From contig NZ_JACHNU010000002.1 of assembly GCF_014199525.1 (NCBI RefSeq), positions 168,147-232,146 of the forward strand: a DNA stretch of 64,000 nt, written 5' to 3'. The translations under genes and the position numbers were made by a program. The notes beneath the pieces were generated by a model, which was not told where the DNA came from, did not search any database, and was given only the letters and a program-made list of their open reading frames with translations. Below, piece by piece: positions 38,717-57,546 of the stretch (positions within the stretch are counted from its first letter, which is position 1; each line of letters opens with the position of its first letter). The stretch comes from Conexibacter arvalis (GTDB lineage: Bacteria; Actinomycetota; Thermoleophilia; Solirubrobacterales; Solirubrobacteraceae).

Positions 38717-38892
38717 GCCACCACCGCCTCGCTCGCGGTCTCCACCCACCGCACGCTCATACCGCCACCGCCACGCTCGCGGTCTCCACCCGCCACGCAC
38801 TCACGCCGCCACCGCCACGCTCGCGTTCTCCACCCGCCACGCACTCACGCCGCCACCGCCACGCTCGCGGTCTCCACCCGCCGCGCGCTCAT
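38603..38892 (-). repeat. Tandem array of the cydC start module
   Basis: Six head-to-tail units read on the minus strand start with ATG or GTG at 38892, 38848, 38804, 38760, 38716 and 38659. The first four are exactly 44 nt long and the last two 57 nt. Each opens ATGAGYG or GTGAGTG, followed by CGGGTGGAG-like text and a GGCGGTGGCGGC tail. Since 44 is not a multiple of 3, the first four change frame; only the starts at 38716 and 38659 are in frame with cydC. The first overlaps the cydD stop as ATGA. Confidence 0.85.
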
Positions 38893-40661
38893 GCCGCCAC
38901 CGCCTCGCGGTCGCGGGCGATCGAGAGGACGCGGCCGTCGCGCAGCTCGACGACGTCGTCGCAGACCGCGATCACGGCGGGGTCGTGTGTCGCGACGACC
39001 GCGGTCCGGCCGGCCGCGGCGGCGCGGATGCCCTCGGCCGCGCGTGCGGCGCTGTCGGGGTCGAGGTGGGCGGTCGGCTCGTCGAGCAGCAGCAGCGGCG
39101 TCCGCGACAGGAGCGCGCCGGCCAGCGCCAGCCGCTGGCGCTGGCCGCCGGACAGCCCGCGCCCGCCCGGACCGACCACGGTCTCCACCCCCGCCTCCAG
39201 CTCGGCGACGACATCGGCCGCGTCGGCCCGCTCCAGCGCGCGCGCAAGCTCCTCGTCGCTCGCATCCGGCGCCTGCAGCAGCAGCGTCTCCGCCAGCGGT
39301 CCGCGCAGCAGCGCCGGCCGCTGCCCAAGCCACGCGACCTCCCGCCACCACGCCTCGCGCGTGAAGGACGTGAGCGGCACCGCCGCCCCCGCGCCGCCCA
39401 TCCCAGTCGCCGCACCGGCCACGCCGCCCAGCGCCGCCGCGCCCGCGCCGAGCGGGCCGACGAGGACCTCGCCGGCGTCCGGCTCGCGCAGACGGGCGAG
39501 CAGCGCCAGGACCGTCGACTTGCCGGCGCCGGAAGCGCCGACCAGCGCGGTCAGGCGGCCGGGGGCGATCGTCAGGTCGACGCCGTCGAGCGCGGGCGGC
39601 CGGCCGGCGCCGCCGAGCACCGTCACGTCGCGCAGCGTCAGCGGCGCGGACGGGATGAATGGCGGTCTGTGTCCCTCCTGGGGATACAGACCGCCACTCG
39701 TCGGCTCGCCGACGAGGTCGAGCAGCTTGCCGGCGGCGGCGGCGCCGTCCTCGGCGGCGTGGTAGCGCTGGCCGGCGAGTCGCAGCGGCACGTAGACCTC
39801 GGGCGCGAGCAGCAGCACGAACAGGCCGGCCTCGAAGCCGAGCGCGCCCTCGGCGAGCTGGACGCCGACGACCGCCGCCGCGATCGCCGTCCCGACCATC
39901 GCCATCAGCTCCAGCACGAGCGCGGAGAGGAAGGCGACCCGCAGCGCCGCGACCGACTCGAGCCGGTAGCGCTCGCCGATCGCCCCGAGCGTCTCAGCCT
40001 GCGCCGCGGCGCGGCCGTGGGCGCGCAGCGTCGGCAGGCCGCGGACGACGTCGAGGAAGTGGGAGCCGAGCACGCCCAGCGCCTGCCGCCGCTCCGCGAT
40101 CCGCTCGGCGCTCGCCTTCCCGACCAGCACCATGAAGACCACGACGAGCGGGAGCGTCAGCGCGAGCAGGATCGCCACCGGCAGGTCCCGCCAGCCGATC
40201 GCGACGACCAGCCCGAACGGCACGACCGCCGCCAGCGCCATCTGCGGCACCGCCTTCGCGTAGTAGTCGGCGAGCGCGTCGACGCCGTGGACGGCGGCGG
40301 TCGCCAGCTCGCCGCGGCGCGCCTCCTCGACCTGCCGCGCGCGGGCGGAGAGGACATGCGCCGCGACGCGCCGGCGCAGCTCGTCCATCGCGCGCTCCGC
40401 GGCGCGGCGGCCGAGCCACTCGGTGATGGCCGACAGCAGCGCCCGCCCGGCGAGCGCCGCCGCAAGCAGCGCGAACGTTCCCTGCAGCGCGCCGAGGTCG
40501 CCGCTCCCGAAGGCCGCGCCGTCGACGATCCGCGCGATCGCGGCCGCCTGCACGACGAGCAGCGCCGCGCCGACCACCCCGGCGGCGATCGCGCCGCCGA
40601 GCAGGAGCCGCGCGCGCGGCGCGAGGCCGAGCAGCCGGCGGTGGACCGCTCTTGCGTTCAC
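38889..40661 (-). CDS. cydD: Cytochrome bd assembly ABC transporter, CydD subunit
   Basis: The 590-aa ABC half-transporter has about six membrane helices, then Walker A GASGAGKST, signature LSGGQRQRLALAGAL and Walker B LLLLDEPTAHLD. It forms a heterodimer with CydC. The GTG at 40661 overlaps the cydB stop (GTGA). Around residues 320-336, between the membrane and ATPase domains, the coding sequence is a 49-nt palindrome relative (39654-39702). A Gly/Ala-rich insert lies after Walker A at about 407-432. The gene order cydA-B-D-C is the usual actinobacterial cluster. Confidence 0.9.
   Translation of the reverse strand: MNARAVHRRLLGLAPRARLLLGGAIAAGVVGAALLVVQAAAIARIVDGAAFGSGDLGALQGTFALLAAALAGRALLSAITEWLGRRAAERAMDELRRRVAAHVLSARARQVEEARRGELATAAVHGVDALADYYAKAVPQMALAAVVPFGLVVAIGWRDLPVAILLALTLPLVVVFMVLVGKASAERIAERRQALGVLGSHFLDVVRGLPTLRAHGRAAAQAETLGAIGERYRLESVAALRVAFLSALVLELMAMVGTAIAAAVVGVQLAEGALGFEAGLFVLLLAPEVYVPLRLAGQRYHAAEDGAAAAGKLLDLVGEPTSGGLYPQEGHRPPFIPSAPLTLRDVTVLGGAGRPPALDGVDLTIAPGRLTALVGASGAGKSTVLALLARLREPDAGEVLVGPLGAGAAALGGVAGAATGMGGAGAAVPLTSFTREAWWREVAWLGQRPALLRGPLAETLLLQAPDASDEELARALERADAADVVAELEAGVETVVGPGGRGLSGGQRQRLALAGALLSRTPLLLLDEPTAHLDPDSAARAAEGIRAAAAGRTAVVATHDPAVIAVCDDVVELRDGRVLSIARDREAVAA
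39654..39702. repeat. 49-nt palindrome (copy 7) inside cydD
   Basis: The arms GATGAATGGCGGTCTGT and ACAGACCGCCACTCGTC pair with few mismatches, and the total is again 49 nt. The outer GAGTGGCG resembles the 15306 and 53264 copies. It is read through in frame by cydD. Confidence 0.65.
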
Positions 40662-42004
40662 CAGCCGCCGCTCCCCGCCCGGCCCGGTCCGCCGCCGCCC
40701 GGCGCCTCCCCGCCGCGCGCGTCGCGCCCGGCCGCGCCGCCGCCGCCAGACGGCGACCAGCCGCCGCCTGCCGAGCCCGTCGCGCCGCCGCCAGACGGCG
40801 ACCAGCCGCCGCCTGCCGAGCCCGTCGCGCCGCCGCCAGACGGCGACCAGCCGACGCCGGACGAGCCCGTCGCGGCCGCCGACCCGGCCGCGCCCGCCGA
40901 GCCGGCCGCGCCCGCCCCGCCTCCGGAGCCGCCGTCGCCGCCGACCTTCTCCGCGACCCTCGCGATCAGGTCGATCGGGCTCGGCAGCGGCGCGCCGACG
41001 GCGGCGCGCGTCACGCGCTCGCGGAACAGCCAGTAGCTCCACGCCTGGATCGCCAGCAGCAGCGGGAGCAGCAGGCCGGTCAGGATCGTCATCAGCGTCA
41101 GCGTGTAGCTGCCCGCGGCGACGTCGGCGAGCGCCAGCCCCGCGCCGCCGTCGGCGCCGTTCAGGCCCGCCGGGAAGAGCGCGCAGAACCAGACCGCGAC
41201 GAGCAGCCCGATCGCCGCGCACCCCGCCGCGAACGCCCGTCCGGCCCGCCGCGCGAGCGCCCCCGCGACCAGCACGCCGAGCGCGGCCGCGCAGCCGGCG
41301 AAGGCGATCCAGCCGAGCACGCCCAGCCCGCCGACGCCGATCGCCGTCCAGACCAGCAGCGCGCCGACGAGCAGCGCGGCGGCCGGAGCCGCGAGGCGCA
41401 GCTCGCGGGAAGCGCGCGCGCTCACCTCGCCGTCGGTCCGCAGCGTGAGGAAGGCGGCGCCGAGCGCGCGGCAGAGCGCGACGAGCGCGAGCCCGCCGAG
41501 CACCGCGTAGACGGAGACGATGTCGAGCGGCCCGCCGACCGCCTCCTCGCCGCGCAGCGCGACGCCGTGCAGCGCGGCGCTCCAGATCAGCCCCCAGCAG
41601 AACGGCGCGACGGTGCTCGCGCCGAGCAGCACGCGCTCCCAGCCGCGCCGCCAGCGCTCGTCGTCGCGCTTGCCGATCAGCTCGATCGCGGCATTGCGCG
41701 AGATCAGCGCCAGCAGCACGAGGAACAGCGGCAGGTAGAGGCTCGACGACCAGGCCGCGTACCAGCCGGGGAAGGCGCCGAACATGCCGACGACGGCGAT
41801 CACGACCCACACCTCGTTGGCCGCCCAGGTCGGGCCGATCGCGTGCAGCGCGACGCGCCGGTCGTGGTGGTCGCCGGTGCCCCCGCGCACCCGCGCGATC
41901 AGCATCCCGACGCCGAAGTCGAACCCCTCCAGCACCAGGTAGAGCGTCCACAGCAGCGCGATCGCGACGAGCCAGATCGTCTGCAGGACAGTCAGGTCAG
42001 GCAT
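40658..42004 (-). CDS. cydB: Cytochrome bd ubiquinol oxidase subunit II
   Basis: The 448-aa membrane subunit (usual 340-380) pairs with CydA in the high-affinity quinol oxidase. Text such as LVLEGFDFGVGML near the start and GPTWAANEVWVV is characteristic. After the last helix (about residue 330) an unusual cytoplasmic tail of some 90 residues holds three perfect-to-near-perfect 15-residue repeats (GGGWSPSGGGATGSA), encoded by 45-nt tandem repeats at about 40725-40860. The tail is likely disordered. The stop overlaps the cydD start. Confidence 0.93.
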   Translation of the reverse strand: MPDLTVLQTIWLVAIALLWTLYLVLEGFDFGVGMLIARVRGGTGDHHDRRVALHAIGPTWAANEVWVVIAVVGMFGAFPGWYAAWSSSLYLPLFLVLLALISRNAAIELIGKRDDERWRRGWERVLLGASTVAPFCWGLIWSAALHGVALRGEEAVGGPLDIVSVYAVLGGLALVALCRALGAAFLTLRTDGEVSARASRELRLAAPAAALLVGALLVWTAIGVGGLGVLGWIAFAGCAAALGVLVAGALARRAGRAFAAGCAAIGLLVAVWFCALFPAGLNGADGGAGLALADVAAGSYTLTLMTILTGLLLPLLLAIQAWSYWLFRERVTRAAVGAPLPSPIDLIARVAEKVGGDGGSGGGAGAAGSAGAAGSAAATGSSGVGWSPSGGGATGSAGGGWSPSGGGATGSAGGGWSPSGGGGAAGRDARGGEAPGGGGPGRAGSGGW

Positions 42005-46256: not shown

Positions 46257-47822
46257 ATGACGCTCCCCCCGTCGACAGCGCCCTCCGAGCTCCTGCCGCC
46301 GCGCGCCGGAAGCTCCTTCGACGACGCCGTCGGGCGCCGCTCGCGCGCGCTGCTGTACGCGGCGCGGATCGGGCACATCGAGGAGGCGCGGCAGCGCAGC
46401 CAGGACCGGCGGCTGCAGCCCTACCGCGCGCCCGAGCTGGCGCTCCACGCGATCGACGCGGTCGCGGTGCGGATGGACCTCGAGTCCGGCGCGACGTGGG
46501 AGCAGGCGCGCGACGAGGTCGCCGCCCAGGCGGCCCGTCAACATCCCGACGGCGACCCGGCCGACCACCGTCACATGGCCGAATGGCTGCTGCGCCAGCT
46601 GACCGACGAGCACGACCACGAGTGGCTCGACGTCAGCGGCGGCGAGGCCGTCCGCCGCACCCACCGCGTCTTCCTCCTCTACGAGACCGAGCAGGCCGGG
46701 CTCCACCACCTGCGCGCCCGCGACCAGGCGATCAACGTGCTGGTCGACGCGCTCGACCTCGACATCGACTCGGCGCAGCTCGCCGCCGAGGCGCGGCTGG
46801 AGCACCTCGTGCGGCGCGGCCGCCACGACGACGCCTACCTCGCCGCGCGCGACAGCCGCATGCAGTCGATCCGCTTCATGGAGCAGGTCCGCGACGACCT
46901 GCGCGAAGCCGAGCGCGACCTGCGCAGCGAGCACTGGTCCTCCACCGTCTCCCCCCGTCTGACCGCCGCGCTCGACCACATCGTCGAGCGGATCGGCGCC
47001 GAGGAGCGGCTGAAGGAGCTGATCCACACCGCCGCCGACCGCGCCGAGGAGGACGACTTCCGCTGGATCCCCCGGACGGTCGAGCTGCTCGACGAATGCC
47101 TCGACCGCCACCAGGCGCTCCAGCAGGTGATCGCCGAGGCGCGCGACACCTTCCTGCTGGAGCAGCAGCGCCAGCACCTGCAGCCGCGCGCCCGCCGCGC
47201 CTTCGCCCATCCGGTCAACGACGTCCTCACGCGCGTGCTCGCGCGCGATTGCGGCGCCGCCGACGAGCTGCTGGCGGCGGTCGAGACCGCGCTCGGCGCC
47301 CGCGCGCCGCGGCTGCTGAGCGAGTGGGCCGGCGTCGACCTCCTCGCCGTCGAGCCCTCCGCGCCGGCCGAGCACGGCACCGAGGTGGCCGCGACCGAGC
47401 TGGCCCCGGACCGCGAGCCGCTGCTCTTCTCCGCCGATCAGGTCGCCGCCGCCGGCGCGCTGCTGGAGCAGGTCGGCGAGCAGCCGGTCGCGCTCGCGAG
47501 GCTGGCGCGCAGAGCCGGCGACCCGGCCGCCGCGCACGCGCTCGCGCTGCTCGCGCTCGCCCACCGGTCGCCGGAGCTGGGGACGCTGTTCGGCCAGGGC
47601 GCGACCTCGGCGCTGCTGACCGTTCCCGCCGACCACGACGACGCGATCTCCTCCCCCGCGCTGGTGCTCCGGCGCGTGGCGCTCGGGCCGCCGATGCAGG
47701 AGCCTGCCGACGACGACCGCGAGCGGGCCGAGCCGGGCGAGCGCGGCCCGGGCAGCGCCGCCGCCGGCCGCGCACCCGGCGCCGACGCGACGGCCGAGGA
47801 GCCGCTGGAGGCCGCCGCGTGA
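46257..47822 (+). CDS. Kleisin-like first gene of an SMC-type operon (JetA/MukF-like)
   Basis: The 521-aa product is largely helical. It has a conserved-looking early part (AARIGHIEEARQRSQDRRLQ), two long helices around EQVRDDLREAERDLRSEHWS, and a disordered acidic/Ala-rich C-terminus. Size, helical content and position ahead of a 253-aa winged-helix-like protein and a giant SMC ATPase match JetA or MukF kleisin subunits; I infer this role from order, not from a motif. The ATG at 46257 follows a TATCGT by 12 nt. The stop overlaps the next GTG (GTGA). Confidence 0.6.
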   Translation: MTLPPSTAPSELLPPRAGSSFDDAVGRRSRALLYAARIGHIEEARQRSQDRRLQPYRAPELALHAIDAVAVRMDLESGATWEQARDEVAAQAARQHPDGDPADHRHMAEWLLRQLTDEHDHEWLDVSGGEAVRRTHRVFLLYETEQAGLHHLRARDQAINVLVDALDLDIDSAQLAAEARLEHLVRRGRHDDAYLAARDSRMQSIRFMEQVRDDLREAERDLRSEHWSSTVSPRLTAALDHIVERIGAEERLKELIHTAADRAEEDDFRWIPRTVELLDECLDRHQALQQVIAEARDTFLLEQQRQHLQPRARRAFAHPVNDVLTRVLARDCGAADELLAAVETALGARAPRLLSEWAGVDLLAVEPSAPAEHGTEVAATELAPDREPLLFSADQVAAAGALLEQVGEQPVALARLARRAGDPAAAHALALLALAHRSPELGTLFGQGATSALLTVPADHDDAISSPALVLRRVALGPPMQEPADDDRERAEPGERGPGSAAAGRAPGADATAEEPLEAAA

Positions 47823-48580
47823 GCACGCCGACCGAGACCGCCCGCGACGCCGGCCAGCTCGTGCGGCTGTCGCTCGCCGCCCGCTCCGGCCCGCTGAGCG
47901 AGGAGCACGCGGCGCTGGTCGCCCGCTACCTCGCCGAGCCTGCCCTGCGCAGCGCGACCGAGGCGACGATCGACGGCCTCGGGCTGCGGCTGGTCGACGC
48001 CAGCGCACAGGGCGGCCTGCTGCTGACCTCGACGGGCTCGGACTCGCCGTTCCGGATGCGGCTGGCCGACTTCTTCCCGCGTCAGACGACGAGCGTGCAG
48101 AGACGGATGCTGCTCGCCTGCGCGATGGTCGCCTCCTTCGTCGCCTTCTTCCCCCGCCCCGAGGACCTCGAGGACAGCAACGAGCGGCTGCGCCGTCGCG
48201 ACGTCGACGACGTCGACCGGCTCGTGCGCGACGTCGCCGCGCGGCTCGACGCCGAGGCGAGAGAGCGCGGCGAGGAGCTCGACCCGCCGATCGACGAGCC
48301 CGACCTCGCGCGTGCCTGGACCGTCTGGCGCCAGACCTCCAACTCGAAGAAGACGGTCGACGGCCGCGAGCGCGAGGTCGGCACCCGCCAGATCGTCGTC
48401 CGCTGCCTCGACCTGCTCGCCGAGCAGGGCCTGCTGCGCACGATCGTCAAGGGCGAGACCTACGCCTCGACCCGCCGGATGCAGGCGATGGCGCGCGAGC
48501 TGGTCGGCTCGCTCGCGTGGTCGCAGGTCGCCGTCGCGCATCCGGGGACGCCGGAGCACGACGAGGAGGCCGCCCCGTGA
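47819..48580 (+). CDS. KITE-like second gene of the SMC-type operon (JetB/MukE-like)
   Basis: The 253-aa protein has the size and apparent winged-helix character of MukE/JetB KITE subunits: FADFFPRQTT-like text near residue 75, VQRRMLLACAMVASFVAFFPRP, then a C-terminal winged-helix-like part (QIVVRCLDLLAEQGLLRTIV). KITE dimers bind the kleisin and stimulate loop extrusion by the SMC. It overlaps both neighbours by 4 nt (GTGA), showing strict stoichiometric coupling. The assignment is by context plus general pattern. Confidence 0.6.
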   Translation: MSTPTETARDAGQLVRLSLAARSGPLSEEHAALVARYLAEPALRSATEATIDGLGLRLVDASAQGGLLLTSTGSDSPFRMRLADFFPRQTTSVQRRMLLACAMVASFVAFFPRPEDLEDSNERLRRRDVDDVDRLVRDVAARLDAEARERGEELDPPIDEPDLARAWTVWRQTSNSKKTVDGREREVGTRQIVVRCLDLLAEQGLLRTIVKGETYASTRRMQAMARELVGSLAWSQVAVAHPGTPEHDEEAAP

Positions 48581-51500
48581 ACTGGCGCATCCGCCGCGCG
48601 CGGCTGGAGGCGGCCGGCCCCGCCGACGCCCGCTACGACGACGTCACGCTCTCCTTCGCCGCCGACGGCCGCGCGGCCCCCAACGCGGTCGTGCTGCTGC
48701 GCAACGGCGGCGGCAAGTCGCTGCTGCTCCACCTGCTGTTCAAGTCGCTGCTGCCGCGCCGCAGCGACGGCACGAAGACCGCCGAGCAGCAGCGCGCGGC
48801 GCGTCCGGTCGTGCTCCCCGGCGAATGCGCGACGGTCGCGATCGAGTGGGAGCACCGCGACGACCCCGGCCGCCTGCTCGTCACCGGCCACAGCTTCGAG
48901 CGCGGCGACGGCGAGGAGTCGCGCTGGATCTTCGAGCCCCACGACGGGATCCTCACGCTCGACACGCTGCCGCTGCGCGACGGCAGACGGCGCCGCACCC
49001 GCGCCGGCCTGATCAGAGCGCTCGACGCGCTCTCCGACGGGCACCCGCGGCTCGGATTCCGCGTCGTCGCGGGCGTCAGAGCGTGGGAGGACGAGCTGCT
49101 CGGCGTCGGCATCGACCCGGCGATCCTCCGCTACCAGGCGCGCCTCAACCGCTCCGAGGGCGGCGACGACGACGAGCTGCGCTTCAACTCGCCGGAGGCG
49201 TTCGCCCGCTTCGTGCTCCAGATGGTGCTGGAGGACGAGCCGCTCGCGAAGCTGCAGCAGCAGGTCCAGACCCACGCCGACCAGCTCGCGCGGCGCGACG
49301 CGCTCGCCCGCGAGGCCGACTTCTGCCGCGACGTCGCCGGGCTGCTGCAGGAGCTGGCGGCCGCGCATGCCCGCGCCGAGGAGAGCGCCGTCGAGCAGGC
49401 CCGCGCCGAGGCGGCGCAGCGGCAGCTGGCGAGGGTCGTCGACGCCGCGATCGACGCCGGGATCGAGCGGCTCGACCGCCTCCGCCTCCAGCGCGAGCCG
49501 CTCGACCGGCAGCGCCGCAGACTGGAGGCCGACGAGCGCGACCTCGACGGCGAGACGCGGATCGTCCGCGCCCGCACCGAGCGGCTGCTCTCGGACGCCG
49601 CCGAGGCGGCGGTCCGCGAGGCGGCCGACGCCGCTCGCGCCGCCGACGCCGAGCACGCCGCGTGGCAGTTCGTCGAGACGCTCGCCGCGCTCTCGGAGAG
49701 CAAAGGCGAGCTGGCCGGCCTGGCCGAGCGGGTGCAGGCGCAGGAGCGCGGCGTCGCCGACGCGCGCGAGGAGCGCCGCACCGCCGCGCTCGCGCTCGCC
49801 GGCGCGCTGCTGCACGCCGCCGCCGCGCTCGACGGCGAGGCCGAGACGCTGCGCGAGCGGCTGGCGCGCGCCGAGGAGAGCCAGGACGAGCTGCGGCGGG
49901 AGAGCGAGGAGCTGTCGCGCCGCGCCGGCGAGCTGAAGCAGCGCCGCGGCACGCTCGAGGCCCAGCTCGACAACTTCGCGCGCGCGACCGAGCGACTGCG
50001 CGCCGACGAGCTGCTCGGCGACGGCGAACGGCCGTCGGCGGCCGTCGAGCGGTTCGAGGCCGAGCGCGAGGACCTGATCGGCCAGCGCCACGACCTCGAC
50101 GGCCGCATCGCGTCGCTGCGCGAGCGCCGCGAGCAGCAGACCGAGCGGCGCGAGGAGGCGCGCGCGAAGGCGGCCGAGCACGCCGCCGCCGCGCAGGAGC
50201 TGGAGCGCCGCCGCGACCAGGCGCTGGCGCGGATGCGCGGCGAGCTCGACGGCGCGATCCACGACGCGCTCGACGTGCCGGCGAGCTGGCAGCCGCTGGA
50301 GGAGCCGGCCGGCGCCGAGCTGGCGCTGGAGCGGGCGCGCGCCGCCGCCGACGCCCGCCGCGCGACGGTCGCCAACGAGATCGACGCCCGCGCCGCCGAC
50401 GAGCGCGCGCTGGAGCGCGACGGTCTGCTGGCGGTCGAGTCCGACGTCGAGCGGATCTGCGAGGAGCTCGAGGCGATGGGGATGCGCGCGCTGCCGGCGC
50501 TGCGCCACCTCGCCGAGACGCGCGGCGACGGCGACCGCGCCGCGTTGGAGGCGGCGATCGCCGCCCGCCCCGGAGCCGCCGCCGGCATCGTCCTGCTCGA
50601 CGGCGACCCGCACGAGGCGATCGTCGAGCTGCAGGCGGCGCGCGTGCGCCCGCCGCGCCGACCGCTGATCGTCGTCGCCGCCGCCGAGCTCGACGGCGCC
50701 GCCGCGACCGCCGCCGGCAGAAGACGCCGCAGCAGAGCGAGAAGCGGCGCGCCGGAGGGAGCGGCCGTCGTCCTCCCCGCCGCCGGCGCCTACGACCCCG
50801 AGGCGGCGGAGGCCGAGCGCGAGCAGATCGCGACCCGCCTCGCCGAGCTGAGAGCGGCGCGCGAGCAGCACCAGCGGCTGTCGGCCCAGCTCGGCCGGCT
50901 CGGCGCGATCGTCGCCGGCGAGGCGGAGGCGCTGCGCGGCCTGCTGCCGCCGAGCGGCCGCAACGAACGGCGGCTGCTGAACGCGCTCGCACGCGAGCTC
51001 GCCCGCCTCGAGGAACAGGCCGAGGCGGCGCGGACGCGCGCCGAGGAGCAGGAGCGGCTGCTGCGCGAGAGCGGCGAGACGCTCGCCGGACTGGAGTCGC
51101 GCCGCGTCGAGGTCGAGCAAGCCGAGCGCCGCTGCGAGCGGGCGCTGGAGCGGCTCGACGCCGTCGACGACCTCGACGTGCGCGCGCTGCGGGGCGAGTT
51201 CGAGCGGCTCGCCGCCCGCATCGACGAGCTGACCGCCGAGGCCGAGGGCGTCCGCCGCCGCCGCGACGAGACGATCCGCGACGCGAAGGGGCTGGAGGAC
51301 CGGCTCGCGACGCTGGAGGGCGAGGCGGCGACGCTGCGCCGCCGCGCCGCCGAGCTGCCGCTCGACGGCCGCGAGCCGGTCGCGGCCGAGGGGTCGCTGG
51401 CCGAGCTGAGCGAGCGGCTGCTGGTCGCCGAGCAGCTGCTGGAGTCGCGCATCTCCGACGGCGAGCTGCGCGCCCGCATGGCCGGCGCCGAGGCCCGCGC

Positions 51501-53229
51501 CGCGCGGCTGCGCGCCGATCTGGAGCGGGCCGGCGAGGCGGTCGTCGCGCGCGCCCGCCAGCTCGCCGGCTCGACCGCCGGGATCGACCCGGCGGCGCTC
51601 GCGCGCGGCCAGCGCGAGGCGAAGGAGGCATACGAGCGGGCGCTGCGCGAGCAGGGCGAGGCGGCGACCGTCGAGGGCCAGGCGGCCGAGCGGCTCTACG
51701 CCGCCAACGAGGCGCTGACGCCGGCCGACCGCACGCGCGAGCCGCGTCTGCTGAAGACGCTGACGCCCAAGGACCCCGCCCACGGCGCGGCCCTGCTCGG
51801 CGAGCTGAACGAGCTGCGCGCGGCGCGCGAGGCCGAGGTCGCCGACAACCGCGCCAAGCTCGCCGACAGCGACGAGCGGATCGCGACCGAGGAGGAGCTG
51901 CTCGCCGAGCTGCGCGCCGGCCGCGGCCGCCTGGCCGTCGACGAGCGCGCCCGCGTGCGGCCGGCGACCGCGGCCGGCGCGGCGCGCGGCCATGCCGCGG
52001 CGGCGCACGGCGATGCGGCGGCGGCGCACGGCGATGCGGCGGCGGCACACGGCGATGCGGGTGCGACCAGCCGCACCGGCGCGCGCAGCGCCGCCGCGGC
52101 GGGGTCGCGGGCGAGCGAGCCGCGCGCGTTCGTCGGCGAGCTGCCGGCGTGGGTCCGGCGCCGCGACCGGATCCACGAGCAGGTGACCGAGGCGGTCGCG
52201 GCGGTCGAGGCGGCGACGCGCGCCCACGGCGAGTCGCGCCGCCTGCTGCAGGAGCGGCTGCGGGCGCTCGCCGACGCGGTCGCTGCCGCCGACGAGCGGA
52301 TCCCCGCCGGGATCACCGCCCCGCTGCGCGCCGGTGAGGCGCTCGCGCCCGACGCCGCGCGGCTGGAGGGCGAGCTGCGCACCCGCGCCGGCGAGCTCGA
52401 CCGCACCGTCGGCGAGCTGGAGCGCCACCGCCAGGCGCTGGTCGCGCAGCTGCTGGCAGTCGGGGCAGAGGGCGTCCGGAAGCTCGACCGTGTCGCCGCC
52501 GCGACGACCCTCCCGCGCGAGGAGGCGCTCGGCGCCTGGTCCGGGAAGCAGTTCGCGCGCGTCCGCCACACGGTGCTGACCGACGACGCCGCCCGCCACA
52601 CGCAGCTCGGCCGCGTGCTCGACGCGGCCGTCGAGGGCAACGCGAGACGGCGCGGCCTCGACCTCGCCTTCGCCGCGACGATGGCGCTGCTGCAGGACGG
52701 CCTCGAGGTGACGGTGCTGAAGCCCCATCCCCAGCCCGACGGCCAGTACCACCCGATCGAGGTCGTCGGCCCGGAGTTCTCCGGCGGCGAGGAGCTGACG
52801 ATCAAGCTCGTGCTGTTCTGCGCGGTGTCGGCGGTCCGGACCGCGGAGCGCGCCGGCCGCTCGGCCGCCGGCCGCCGCGCCGGCCCGCTGCTGATCGACA
52901 ACCCGATCGGCACCGCCAGCCGCGAGTCGCTCGTCGACCTCCAGCTGCGCCTCGCCCGCCACCTCGACGCCCAGTTCATCCCGTTCACCGGGCTGGAGGG
53001 CGAGCTGAACGTGACCGGCCGCTTCGCCGCCGTCGTCGCGCTCACCAACGACAAGGACCTGCTCGGCGGCATGCGCTACGTCAAGCCGGTCGGCGGCGAC
53101 GGCAGGGCGCCGATCCTGCCGCCCCGCCCCGACGACACGCCCGACGGCGCCGCGCTCGTCACCGCCGTCAGCTACACCCCGCGCGTCGACGTCGCCGCCC
53201 TCGCCGACGCCGCCCGCGGCGAAGGCTGA
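48577..53229 (+). CDS. Giant SMC/MukB/JetC-like coiled-coil ATPase
   Basis: The 1550-aa protein has the SMC plan. The N-terminal ATPase half has a Walker A-like LLRNGGGKSLLLHLL (Lys47, Ser48; the first Gly of GxxxxGKS is replaced). A coiled coil of about 1100 residues (about 235-1330) is Arg/Glu/Ala-rich, and the C-terminal half has the signature EFSGGEEL near residue 1403 and Walker B PLLIDNPIG near 1437. A GDAAAAH repeat (about 1138-1162) interrupts the coil. It should dimerise and act on DNA, as condensin or as plasmid/phage defence (Wadjet type). No TOPRIM nuclease gene (JetD/MksG) is adjacent. Confidence 0.8.
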   Translation: MNWRIRRARLEAAGPADARYDDVTLSFAADGRAAPNAVVLLRNGGGKSLLLHLLFKSLLPRRSDGTKTAEQQRAARPVVLPGECATVAIEWEHRDDPGRLLVTGHSFERGDGEESRWIFEPHDGILTLDTLPLRDGRRRRTRAGLIRALDALSDGHPRLGFRVVAGVRAWEDELLGVGIDPAILRYQARLNRSEGGDDDELRFNSPEAFARFVLQMVLEDEPLAKLQQQVQTHADQLARRDALAREADFCRDVAGLLQELAAAHARAEESAVEQARAEAAQRQLARVVDAAIDAGIERLDRLRLQREPLDRQRRRLEADERDLDGETRIVRARTERLLSDAAEAAVREAADAARAADAEHAAWQFVETLAALSESKGELAGLAERVQAQERGVADAREERRTAALALAGALLHAAAALDGEAETLRERLARAEESQDELRRESEELSRRAGELKQRRGTLEAQLDNFARATERLRADELLGDGERPSAAVERFEAEREDLIGQRHDLDGRIASLRERREQQTERREEARAKAAEHAAAAQELERRRDQALARMRGELDGAIHDALDVPASWQPLEEPAGAELALERARAAADARRATVANEIDARAADERALERDGLLAVESDVERICEELEAMGMRALPALRHLAETRGDGDRAALEAAIAARPGAAAGIVLLDGDPHEAIVELQAARVRPPRRPLIVVAAAELDGAAATAAGRRRRSRARSGAPEGAAVVLPAAGAYDPEAAEAEREQIATRLAELRAAREQHQRLSAQLGRLGAIVAGEAEALRGLLPPSGRNERRLLNALARELARLEEQAEAARTRAEEQERLLRESGETLAGLESRRVEVEQAERRCERALERLDAVDDLDVRALRGEFERLAARIDELTAEAEGVRRRRDETIRDAKGLEDRLATLEGEAATLRRRAAELPLDGREPVAAEGSLAELSERLLVAEQLLESRISDGELRARMAGAEARAARLRADLERAGEAVVARARQLAGSTAGIDPAALARGQREAKEAYERALREQGEAATVEGQAAERLYAANEALTPADRTREPRLLKTLTPKDPAHGAALLGELNELRAAREAEVADNRAKLADSDERIATEEELLAELRAGRGRLAVDERARVRPATAAGAARGHAAAAHGDAAAAHGDAAAAHGDAGATSRTGARSAAAAGSRASEPRAFVGELPAWVRRRDRIHEQVTEAVAAVEAATRAHGESRRLLQERLRALADAVAAADERIPAGITAPLRAGEALAPDAARLEGELRTRAGELDRTVGELERHRQALVAQLLAVGAEGVRKLDRVAAATTLPREEALGAWSGKQFARVRHTVLTDDAARHTQLGRVLDAAVEGNARRRGLDLAFAATMALLQDGLEVTVLKPHPQPDGQYHPIEVVGPEFSGGEELTIKLVLFCAVSAVRTAERAGRSAAGRRAGPLLIDNPIGTASRESLVDLQLRLARHLDAQFIPFTGLEGELNVTGRFAAVVALTNDKDLLGGMRYVKPVGGDGRAPILPPRPDDTPDGAALVTAVSYTPRVDVAALADAARGEG

Positions 53230-55828: not shown

Positions 55829-57136
55829 TCAGCCGCCCAGCCGCAGCCGGTGACCGCGCGCGATCCGGGCGGCGTCGGCCTCCGGCACGTCGGCCGCGGC
55901 CGCGAACTCGGGCCAGCGAGTGACCGCCGCGACCACCTCCGCGACGATCTCGGCCGCGCGGCCGCGGGCCATCGCCGCGCCGTCGGCGACCGCCCGCAGG
56001 TCGGCCGGCTCGAAGCCGTCGCGCTTGCCGTTGACGGTCATCTGGTGGCTGCCGACCCAGCGATGGCCCGGCTCCCACGCGTAGGTCAGGTCGAACGCCG
56101 GCGAGAGGCGCCAGCCGCCCGCGCGGTCCATCAGGAAGGCGATGTTCTTGACGTGGTCGTCCTGGTTGCGCGCGACGACGTTGAACGCCATCCGGCGGAA
56201 CTGCTCCTCGATCGCGGCCATCCCGAGGCCGAGCCGGCGGATCGCCTGCAGTGCCTGCTCGTAGGAGTGGGCGCCGGCGAGGTTGTAGTCGTGGTGGCCG
56301 AGCGCGCCGAGCGACTGCATGTGCAGCTTGCCGCCGTCCGGGAGCCGGTCGAAGCGGCGCGTCATGAAGTGGCGGCGGCCGTTCTCCTCCAGCAGCCGGC
56401 AGGGGCTCATCTCGATCCCGGCCGCCCGCGCCATCAGCGCGTAGGCGTATTCGATCGCGCCGTAGCCGAGCGGATCCTCGAGCCCCTTGTCGCCGCTGCC
56501 GGAGACGCCGTCGAACTTCAGCAGCCAATGCTCGAAGCCGTCGCCGGGATGGACCTGGCCGGAGCGCACGACGCCGCTCTCCGGGTTCCAGGCGATCACC
56601 GCCTTCGCGCGGGCGCCTCCTGCCGAGGTGCCGACGCGCAGGATGTCGGCGAGCGCATGCTCGCGGGCGGGCCCGTCGAGCGACCCGCTCAGCGCCTCGC
56701 GACGGCTCAGCACCTCGGCCGCGAGCGCGACGAGCGCGCCGACCTCGAGCTCCCGCTCGGCGCTGGCCGCCGGGCCGCGCGACGGCGCGAACTCGAGCGC
56801 GCCCATCCCCCGCGTGCCGACGTAGCAGAGCCGCTCGACCGCGTCGAAGCTCTCCGGCGCGCGCCCCTGGCGGGCGAGCCACGCGTCGATCAACGCGTTG
56901 CCGAAGCGGTCGGGCAGCGAGTCGGCCAGGAGCCCGGGCAGCCCGCGGAAGGCGTCGTGGGCGAGCGCGGGGAAGGCGTACGGCTCAGTCCGCAGCGGCA
57001 TCGCCAGCGGTGCCACCTCGATCCCGCTGCCCGCGAACTCGCGGTCGTACTGGAAGACGGCCGTCCCGCCGGGCGAATCGAGCGAGACGGCGCCGATCGC
57101 CCGCCCCCACAGCCGCACCTCCGCGAGGCTGCTCAA
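55829..57136 (-). CDS. hipA: HipA-family toxin kinase
   Basis: The 435-aa serine/threonine kinase is the toxin of a type II system; E. coli HipA phosphorylates glutamyl-tRNA synthetase. Motifs are intact: G-loop-like VGTSAGGARAKAVI, catalytic-lysine region LLKFDGVSG, HFMTRRFDR, the catalytic loop ARNQDDHVKNIAF, and the metal-binding SPAFDLTY. A TTG start at 57136 overlapping the hipB stop (TTGA) gives the SSLAEVRLWGR N-terminus. Its target may differ from that of E. coli HipA. Confidence 0.92.
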   Translation of the reverse strand: MSSLAEVRLWGRAIGAVSLDSPGGTAVFQYDREFAGSGIEVAPLAMPLRTEPYAFPALAHDAFRGLPGLLADSLPDRFGNALIDAWLARQGRAPESFDAVERLCYVGTRGMGALEFAPSRGPAASAERELEVGALVALAAEVLSRREALSGSLDGPAREHALADILRVGTSAGGARAKAVIAWNPESGVVRSGQVHPGDGFEHWLLKFDGVSGSGDKGLEDPLGYGAIEYAYALMARAAGIEMSPCRLLEENGRRHFMTRRFDRLPDGGKLHMQSLGALGHHDYNLAGAHSYEQALQAIRRLGLGMAAIEEQFRRMAFNVVARNQDDHVKNIAFLMDRAGGWRLSPAFDLTYAWEPGHRWVGSHQMTVNGKRDGFEPADLRAVADGAAMARGRAAEIVAEVVAAVTRWPEFAAAADVPEADAARIARGHRLRLGG

Positions 57137-57501
57137 GCGACGTTCCGGTCGTCCGGCTCGTCGCCCCACGTCCACGGCCGCGGCGGCTCGTCGCGACGGG
57201 CCGCGGCCCTGCCGGCGCGTCTGCGCCGTCTGCCGTGCAGCTTGAGCTGCTCGATCGGGCTGGGAAGCGGCTCCGGCACGAGCGCGTCGAGCCGGTCGAG
57301 CATGCCGAGCGCGCGCAGCACGCGCACGAGGTTGGAGAGCTTGCTCTCCTCGCCGGCCTCGATCCGCTCGATCGTCCGCTTCGACAGCCCCGCCTCGGTC
57401 GCGAGCTGCTGCTGGCTGACGTTGCGCTCCAGCCGCGTGCGCGCGAGGCGCGCGCCCAGCTCGCGCAGCACCGCCCGGTCGCTGCTGTCTCCCGAGATCA
57501 T
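57133..57501 (-). CDS. hipB: HipB-family antitoxin
   Basis: The 122-aa antitoxin carries a Cro/C1-type helix-turn-helix (NVSQQQLATEAGLSKRTIER), then a tail with an Arg-rich stretch ([15 protein letters not shown]) and WTWGDEPDDRN at the end. It should neutralise HipA and repress the operon. The ATG at 57501 is used; a GTG four codons upstream overlaps the AGGAG and is the alternative. It precedes hipA with a 4-nt overlap. Three operators lie upstream. Confidence 0.9.
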   Translation of the reverse strand: MISGDSSDRAVLRELGARLARTRLERNVSQQQLATEAGLSKRTIERIEAGEESKLSNLVRVLRALGMLDRLDALVPEPLPSPIEQLKLHGRRRRRAGRAAARRDEPPRPWTWGDEPDDRNVA

Positions 57502-57546
57502 GCTGTTCGCCACTCCTGTCGAATAGGCCGGGCTGCTGCCCCTGCA

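What the first reader, a model, noticed from the sequence alone, without database searches (positions are those of the whole stretch)
46257..53229. SMC-type three-gene operon without a nuclease: possible new MukFEB/Wadjet-like system
Three genes overlapping by GTGA encode proteins of 521, 253 and 1550 aa. The third has Walker A-like LLRNGGGKS, a coiled coil of about 1100 residues, SGGEE and LLIDNPIG, the SMC plan. The order large helical protein, KITE-sized protein, giant SMC copies jetABC/mukFEB. Known Wadjet (JetABCD) and MksBEFG systems carry a TOPRIM nuclease (JetD/MksG) next door; here the flanks are a MOSC protein and an S4 protein. JetC/MksB proteins are usually nearer 1100 aa. This could be an orphan condensin, a defence system with a distant effector, or an undescribed class.
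Basis: partly seen in the sequence, partly recalled or inferred. Interest (0 to 1): 0.85.

Follow-up and report, generated by a model that had tools for sequence, protein, structure and literature searches.

The report
Wadjet-type SMC operon lacking its nuclease
Three genes encode the DNA-moving motor of a bacterial plasmid-destroying machine (Wadjet type III) but not its DNA-cutting subunit, and similar cutter-less motors recur in other actinobacteria, which suggests that the motor has been put to another use, perhaps shaping the chromosome.

Summary
[quoted passage not shown]); predicted folds of JetA and JetB agree, modestly. The 1550-residue SMC is normal for type III. JetD nuclease was found neither at the locus nor in the genome, by searches that find it elsewhere. 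In the genus (Conexibacter, inferred) 4 of 7 genomes have the operon, none of the four JetD. So it fails PADLOC's four-gene definition of Wadjet. It is not an undescribed class: nuclease-less MksBEF of Pseudomonas aeruginosa is a published precedent. What looks new is the scale. JetD-less type III JetABC recurs in Pseudonocardiaceae, Frankia and Streptomyces (JetA3 in 147 of 150 genomes, strong JetD3 in 11 of 150), and AU tests reject the JetD-less rows as one clade. Best explanation, inferred, about 0.5: a chromosomal SMC motor that shed its nuclease more than once and works like an accessory condensin. No function was tested.

The parts
46257..47822 (+). jetA (type III), JetA/MukF-like kleisin, 521 aa
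   Evidence: PADLOC JetA3 PDLC00567 E 3.8e-78, residues 19-470. AF2 model pLDDT 75.5, pTM 0.40. Foldseek: none at E <= 0.001; best 1.6e-3 to 8q72_E of a JetABCD core, then 3rpu_B of MukE-MukF. VIA Z 13.0, rmsd 7.1, 224 residues to 3rpu_A, tied with unrelated helical bundles
47819..48580 (+). jetB (type III), KITE-like winged-helix protein, 253 aa
   Evidence: PADLOC JetB3 E 1.1e-3. AF2 model pLDDT 81.3, pTM 0.74. Foldseek: none at E <= 0.001, but the five best rows are Wadjet JetABC entries and MukE-MukF, best E 7.4e-3. VIA Z 8.3, rmsd 6.2, 179 residues to 8as8_C
48577..53229 (+). jetC (type III), SMC ATPase, 1550 aa
   Evidence: PADLOC JetC3 PDLC00588 E 5.5e-125; no Pfam or NCBIfam family above cut-off
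48703..48720 (+). Walker A of JetC, NGGGKS (residues 43-48)
   Evidence: NGGGK plus S, T or G in 89 of 89 rows
52780..52794 (+). ABC signature of JetC, SGGEE (residues 1402-1406)
52888..52911 (+). Walker B of JetC, LLIDNPIG (residues 1438-1445); Asn where ABC ATPases usually have Glu (recalled), a feature of the whole family
   Evidence: D-N-P in 89 of 89 rows, the 20 JetD-bearing ones included
51975..52060 (+). 21-bp tandem repeat (about 4 copies) inside jetC, before the C-terminal head; a gap in the G182 and G087 copies (G584 not compared)
   Evidence: repeat; alignment

Best explanation
The operon makes a type III JetABC complex (JetC SMC, JetA kleisin, JetB KITE) that has lost its JetD nuclease. 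Most likely it still uses ATP to load on and extrude DNA, as JetABC does in complete Wadjet, but extrusion no longer ends in a cut, so the complex acts like an accessory condensin on the host chromosome beside the ordinary SMC-ScpAB. Shown here: family membership of the three subunits, intact head motifs, purifying selection, conserved location in three of four genus genomes, no JetD found genome-wide, JetD-less rows in more than one clade, presence of ScpA. Inferred: complex assembly, ATPase, loop extrusion, direction of change (loss rather than gain of JetD), and the condensin-like role.
For: JetA3/B3/C3 matches and fold matches. JetD3 not found in G000, G182, G087 or G584, while the same searches ring in G388, G242, G358, G285 and G573 at 1e-58 to 1e-144. 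No JetD remnant in window, L005, L006, L007 or L157: best E 1.1, against 1e-119 and 1e-123 for two positive loci. G000, G182 and G584 keep the operon in the same wider neighbourhood; in G087 it lies on a 6.36-Mb contig beside genes that resemble window genes at 32-36 kb (by eye). dN/dS 0.25-0.57, neighbours 0.22-0.64; JetC residues 1400-1499 are invariant in 93% of columns over four genomes. ScpA in 6 of 7 genus genomes. Elsewhere: JetA3 in 147 of 150 genomes of the genus of G542 (Streptomyces, inferred) and JetD3 below E 1e-40 in 11 of 150. Of 58 named genomes with a JetD-less locus, 55 gave no JetD anywhere: 36 of 38, 19 of 20. In Amycolatopsis rifamycinica jetD sits between jetC and a gene that in A. 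vancoresmycina and A. bullii follows jetC. AU tests reject one clade for the 19 JetD-less rows of 36 (p 3.8e-7) and for Conexibacter plus Streptomycetaceae (p 0.0011).
Against: The operon is patchy: 4 of 7 genus genomes, with G113 and G160 98% and 96% complete and lacking it, and only 3 strong hits among 201 genomes of the order. That is unlike a core condensin. No function was tested. JetC's Walker B has Asn in place of the usual Glu, so vigorous ATP hydrolysis is not assured, though JetD-bearing relatives share it. The Conexibacter branch is long, its place unsure, and the groups for the AU tests were named after a first tree was seen. The trees are unrooted; JetD could have been gained in some lineages. 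JetB and JetC were not searched in the 150 genomes.
Confidence: 0.5

Rival explanations
1. Still anti-plasmid or anti-phage defence, without cutting: JetABC loads on small circular DNA and compacts or silences it, as is proposed for Smc5/6 on viral circles, or blocks its replication.
For: Type I systems studied restrict plasmids, and Smc5/6 is proposed to compact circular DNA (passages of PMC10586767). Some complete type III relatives are on plasmids (with JetD confirmed). Patchy presence in the genus fits accessory defence.
Against: Repeated chromosomal places and presence in 147 of 150 Streptomyces-type genomes are unlike most defence genes; no relative confirmed in viral contigs.
Confidence: 0.2
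2. Complete defence with a distant or unrelated effector encoded elsewhere in the genome, a non-homologous replacement of JetD.
For: Absence was tested only for JetD-like proteins; an unrelated nuclease would be missed.
Against: By eye, no gene is shared next to jetABC by all four genus loci or across lineages.
Confidence: 0.15
3. Decaying remnant of a Wadjet system that lost jetD and is on its way out.
For: JetD-less rows in more than one clade; operon not found in 3 of 7 genus genomes, one of them only 77% complete.
Against: All three frames intact in four genomes at dS 0.27-0.43, dN/dS like neighbouring genes; JetA3 kept in 147 of 150 Streptomyces-type genomes; Walker B intact in 67 of 67 JetD-less rows.
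Confidence: 0.1
4. A wholly new class of SMC system unrelated to Wadjet, MukBEF or MksBEF.
For: No Pfam or NCBIfam family above cut-off and no convincing PDB relative by sequence.
Against: PADLOC type III matches for all three, same order, relatives with jetD attached.
Confidence: 0.02

Closest known systems
Wadjet type III (PADLOC JetA3/B3/C3/D3)
   Same: Same three subunits, order and SMC size; same head motifs
   Different: No JetD found in locus or genome; JetC only 19-27% identical to the seven type III relatives outside the genus that were aligned
MksBEF of Pseudomonas aeruginosa
   Same: SMC, kleisin and KITE without a nuclease; [quoted passage not shown]
   Different: Not compared by sequence here; MksB of C. 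glutamicum is 1111 aa (passage of PMC10123090) against 1550 here
MukBEF
   Same: Order kleisin-KITE-SMC (recalled); predicted JetB and JetA resemble chains of MukE-MukF
   Different: No match to such families in Pfam or NCBIfam; MukBEF apparently replaced Smc-ScpAB (passage of PMC10586767), whereas ScpA is present here
SMC-ScpAB
   Same: SMC architecture
   Different: JetC scores 15.4 bits against a cut-off of 567.35 for SMC_prok_B; the genome has its own ScpA on another contig

Membership tests
Wadjet type III | JetA3 kleisin | tested here: met
   PDLC00567 E 3.8e-78 over residues 19-470
Wadjet type III | JetB3 KITE | tested here: met
   Weak by profile, PDLC00577 E 1.1e-3; 23-30% identical to JetB of six JetD-bearing loci; fold closest to Wadjet JetABC chains and MukE
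Wadjet type III | JetC3 SMC ATPase of about 1450-1500 aa | tested here: met
   PDLC00588 E 5.5e-125
Wadjet type III | JetD TOPRIM nuclease encoded with JetABC (PADLOC requires the full JetABCD set, passage of PMC9252829) | tested here: not met
   Not found with PDLC00594, alignment A4 of eight JetD3, or nearby as a remnant. PF09983 also none, but it misses two of eight type III JetD at E 0.01; PF09664 none, without a positive control
Wadjet type III | Restricts circular plasmids | not testable with these tools
   Needs an experiment
MukBEF/MksBEF condensins | SMC, kleisin and KITE in one operon and no nuclease | tested here: met
MukBEF/MksBEF condensins | Sequence match to MukB/MukE/MukF family models | tested here: not met
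   None listed in Pfam or NCBIfam at E up to 1; that these libraries hold Muk models is recalled. A PADLOC model noted as MukB-like (JetC1, PDLC00519) matches only at E 0.075
MukBEF/MksBEF condensins | Chromosome organisation or segregation role | not testable with these tools
   Needs deletion and chromosome-contact maps
SMC-ScpAB | Match to SMC_prok_B | tested here: not met
   15.4 bits against cut-off 567.35

The most novel reading that the evidence does not exclude
Type III Wadjet has given rise, more than once across Actinomycetota, to a nuclease-free SMC complex that is now part of the resident chromosome machinery: nearly universal in Streptomyces, common in Pseudonocardiaceae, accessory in Conexibacter. 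It would be an unstudied extra bacterial condensin beside SMC-ScpAB.
Probability: 0.4. Interest if true: 0.8.

Novelty: new variant of a known kind. Interest (0 to 1): 0.58.

Why it matters
That defence SMC motors turned into chromosome-organising ones (MksBEF, MukBEF) has been proposed (passages of PMC10586767) but rests on few cases. JetD-less type III JetABC offers many, at least one with a JetD-bearing sister species at the same site, so the change can be studied close to its origin. If the Streptomyces complex works, organisms used for chromosome-folding studies carry a second SMC complex. I found no paper on it in ten library searches, of which I saw listings and some passages; the library holds open-licence papers only, and two listings were cut (20 of 5,875, 20 of 22).

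Tried and rejected
Viral origin: 34 stretches of viral contigs matched the pattern, none encodes a relative. PDB relatives by sequence: nothing convincing for the JetC, JetA or JetB profiles; the rows were an outer surface protein, designed proteins, HTH and other unrelated proteins. Linked effector: Pfam and PADLOC scans of ten neighbouring ORFs each, some of them shadow frames, gave none; the mad3/AriA hits on ORF 38889-41951 I take to come from an ABC transporter ATPase beside cyd-like genes (names from sequence by eye and recall, no family search). Locus tags SCO1631-1633 were guessed to be the Streptomyces coelicolor genes; passages show SCO1631 is a helicase, so the guess was wrong. JetA fold rows: CorA and designed bundles score like MukF, so that match alone is weak. 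A weak JetA hit in G169 (E 9.5e-4) shows no jet operon in its region (L008) and was set aside. A hinge-less SMC variant in marine Actinobacteria (passage of PMC12153180) was not compared.

Results against or beside the reading: weak JetD hits at E 0.16-0.21 in G182, G377 and G440 and 0.11 in G542; 10 further Streptomyces-type genomes with JetD3 matches at 2.3e-7 to 7.9e-4 besides the 11 strong ones; 3 of 150 without JetA3, of which G654 is 98% complete.

Rows dropped before counts: of 101 loci, 12 were left out of the 89-row tree (L046, L047, L049, L050, L055, L057, L062, L063, L112 as partial or duplicate; L065, L079, L120 for low JetC score); 2 of the 89 have no JetD label. In some searches only 48 and up to 84 first-look candidates per genome were scored in most genomes, and some genomes are draft or metagenome assemblies; controls rang 6 of 6 and 1 of 1.
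Full report
Observation. Three genes on + at 46257-47822, 47819-48580 and 48577-53229 overlap by GTGA and encode 521, 253 and 1550 aa. The third carries LLRNGGGKS, SGGEE and LLIDNPIG. Pfam and NCBIfam list no family above cut-off, but PADLOC matches JetA3 (3.8e-78), JetB3 (1.1e-3) and JetC3 (5.5e-125).

Folds. With 45 and 46 aligned rows, AlphaFold2 gives JetB at mean pLDDT 81.3, pTM 0.74 and JetA at 75.5, pTM 0.40. For JetB no Foldseek match reaches E 0.001, but the five best rows are Wadjet JetABC entries and MukE-MukF (best E 7.4e-3), and VIA-align puts 8as8_C first (Z 8.3, rmsd 6.2, 179 residues). For JetA the first Foldseek row is a chain of a JetABCD core (8q72_E, E 1.6e-3), then a MukE-MukF chain, then CorA; the VIA row for 3rpu_A (Z 13.0, rmsd 7.1, 224 residues) is tied with helical bundles. 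That these chains are JetB, JetA, MukE and MukF is my reading of the entries. JetC was not modelled and its coiled coil was not predicted by a program.

The nuclease. No neighbour scanned is a nuclease. The genome gives no JetD_C domain (the control rings in Corynebacterium glutamicum), no JetD3 and no match to an alignment of eight type III JetD proteins, while five other genomes ring at 1e-58 to 1e-144 in the last two searches. The eight JetD proteins were checked: all match PADLOC JetD3, six match Pfam JetD_C at E 0.01 or better, five of them above cut-off, so the Pfam search alone is not enough. No remnant shows in the window or the other genus stretches: best E 1.1.

The genus. Of 7 genus genomes 4 carry JetA: G000, G182, G087, G584. 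All four loci hold jetA, jetB and jetC and no jetD, and JetD was found in none of the four genomes (G182 had a weak hit at E 0.207). In a sample of 201 genomes of the order only the three genus members then drawn had strong JetA3 hits. G000, G182 and G584 share a wider neighbourhood: cyd-like genes, an ANTAR regulator, an S4-like protein and a serC-like aminotransferase (cyd, S4 and serC names by eye and recall, the aminotransferase and ANTAR domains by Pfam). In G087 the operon is on a 6.36-Mb contig beside genes that look like window genes at 32-36 kb (by eye). The frames are intact and under selection: dN/dS 0.25-0.52 (jetA), 0.25-0.38 (jetB), 0.40-0.57 (jetC), neighbours 0.22-0.64, dS of the jet genes 0.27-0.43 (simple NG86, biased by very high GC3). 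ScpA is in 6 of 7 genus genomes, the miss being 77% complete, so this is an extra SMC complex and not a replacement.

Beyond the genus. A scan of species genomes gave 80 named loci, the best 80 of 485: 15 have JetD near jetC, 4 cannot tell, 61 show none. JetD-less loci sit at repeated places. In 16 of the 23 Streptomyces-type loci listed a conservon-like gene is among the first three downstream genes, and also in five loci read (L040, L041, L042, L044, L051). In 8 of the 27 Amycolatopsis and Prauserella loci a gap-like gene is among the first three, and further downstream in L082. These gene names are by eye. For Frankia and Pseudonocardia no common place was looked for. In the genus of G542, which groups with named Streptomyces in the tree, JetA3 is in 147 of 150 genomes and JetD3 in 21 of 150 at E 1e-3, 11 of them below 1e-40. 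JetB and JetC were not searched in those 150; JetC3 rang in 11 genomes of this genus in a phylum sample (18 of 396 genomes in all, one of them weak). In G388 the strong JetD belongs to a second, complete copy (L043). Whole genomes of 58 named JetD-less loci were searched: 36 of 38 and 19 of 20 gave no JetD; the exceptions are A. azurea, Candidatus Frankia meridionalis (partial match) and Streptomyces sp. LBL. Controls rang 6 of 6 and 1 of 1.

History. On a tree of 89 rows (87 labelled) the JetD label needs at least 7 changes. On 36 chosen rows AU tests reject the 19 JetD-less rows as one clade (p 3.8e-7) and the 3 Conexibacter plus 7 Streptomycetaceae rows as one clade (p 0.0011). The groups were named after the first tree was seen, long branches are present, and the Conexibacter placement is unsure. 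In A. rifamycinica jetD lies between jetC and a gene that in A. vancoresmycina and A. bullii follows jetC directly; loss in the sisters is the simpler reading, gain is not excluded. The trees are unrooted, so 'loss' is inference, helped by JetD being present in the most divergent relatives (L045, L048, L054, L056).

Mechanism. In Wadjet, JetABC extrudes plasmid DNA and JetD is then activated to cut (passages of PMC12647877, and PMC10586767). Without JetD the motor should run but not cut. P. [quoted passage not shown] I therefore favour an accessory condensin (0.5), then silent defence (0.2), distant effector (0.15), remnant (0.1). Against a vigorous ATPase stands the Asn in Walker B, but JetD-bearing relatives share it. 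Against a core role stands the patchy presence in the genus.

Novelty. PADLOC needs all four genes for a Wadjet call and reports partial sets as 'other' (passage of PMC9252829), which may be why this group is not discussed. A survey of Actinobacteria reports Wadjet in 42% of genomes; the passages I saw do not mention JetD-less loci (PMC10482375). A 2026 paper on SMC in Streptomyces names no second SMC complex in the passages I saw (PMC13121528). Ten library searches turned up no paper on nuclease-less type III JetABC (listings and passages only). I call it a new variant of a known kind.

Noticed in passing
window 51975-52060: 21-bp tandem repeat (about 4 copies, 90% matches) inside jetC giving a short Ala-His-Gly-Asp repeat; a gap in the G182 and G087 copies.
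   Followed up: partly
window 55829-57513, minus strand: HipA-like protein (HipA_C E 3.9e-49) with a small gene directly upstream that looks like a helix-turn-helix protein, a HipBA-type toxin-antitoxin layout (the small gene was not scanned on its own).
   Followed up: no
L043 (G388) and 10 further genomes of 150: Some Streptomyces-type genomes hold a strong JetD3; in G388 it belongs to a complete type III JetABCD beside the JetD-less copy, so the two kinds could be compared in one cell.
   Followed up: partly
JetC of 89 rows; window 52888-52911: Type III JetC has D-N-P in Walker B where SMC and ABC ATPases usually have D-E (recalled); the catalytic residue may lie elsewhere.
   Followed up: no
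L055 5994-10310: An Embleya sp. NBC_00888 plasmid holds what looks like an incomplete type III copy: two JetC pieces in separate frames and a partial JetD, no JetA or JetB match in the stretch.
   Followed up: no
L054 14693-15547: On a Streptomyces plasmid a gene annotated as 3'-5' exonuclease (RNase_T, just below cut-off) follows jetD directly, perhaps an extra subunit.
   Followed up: no
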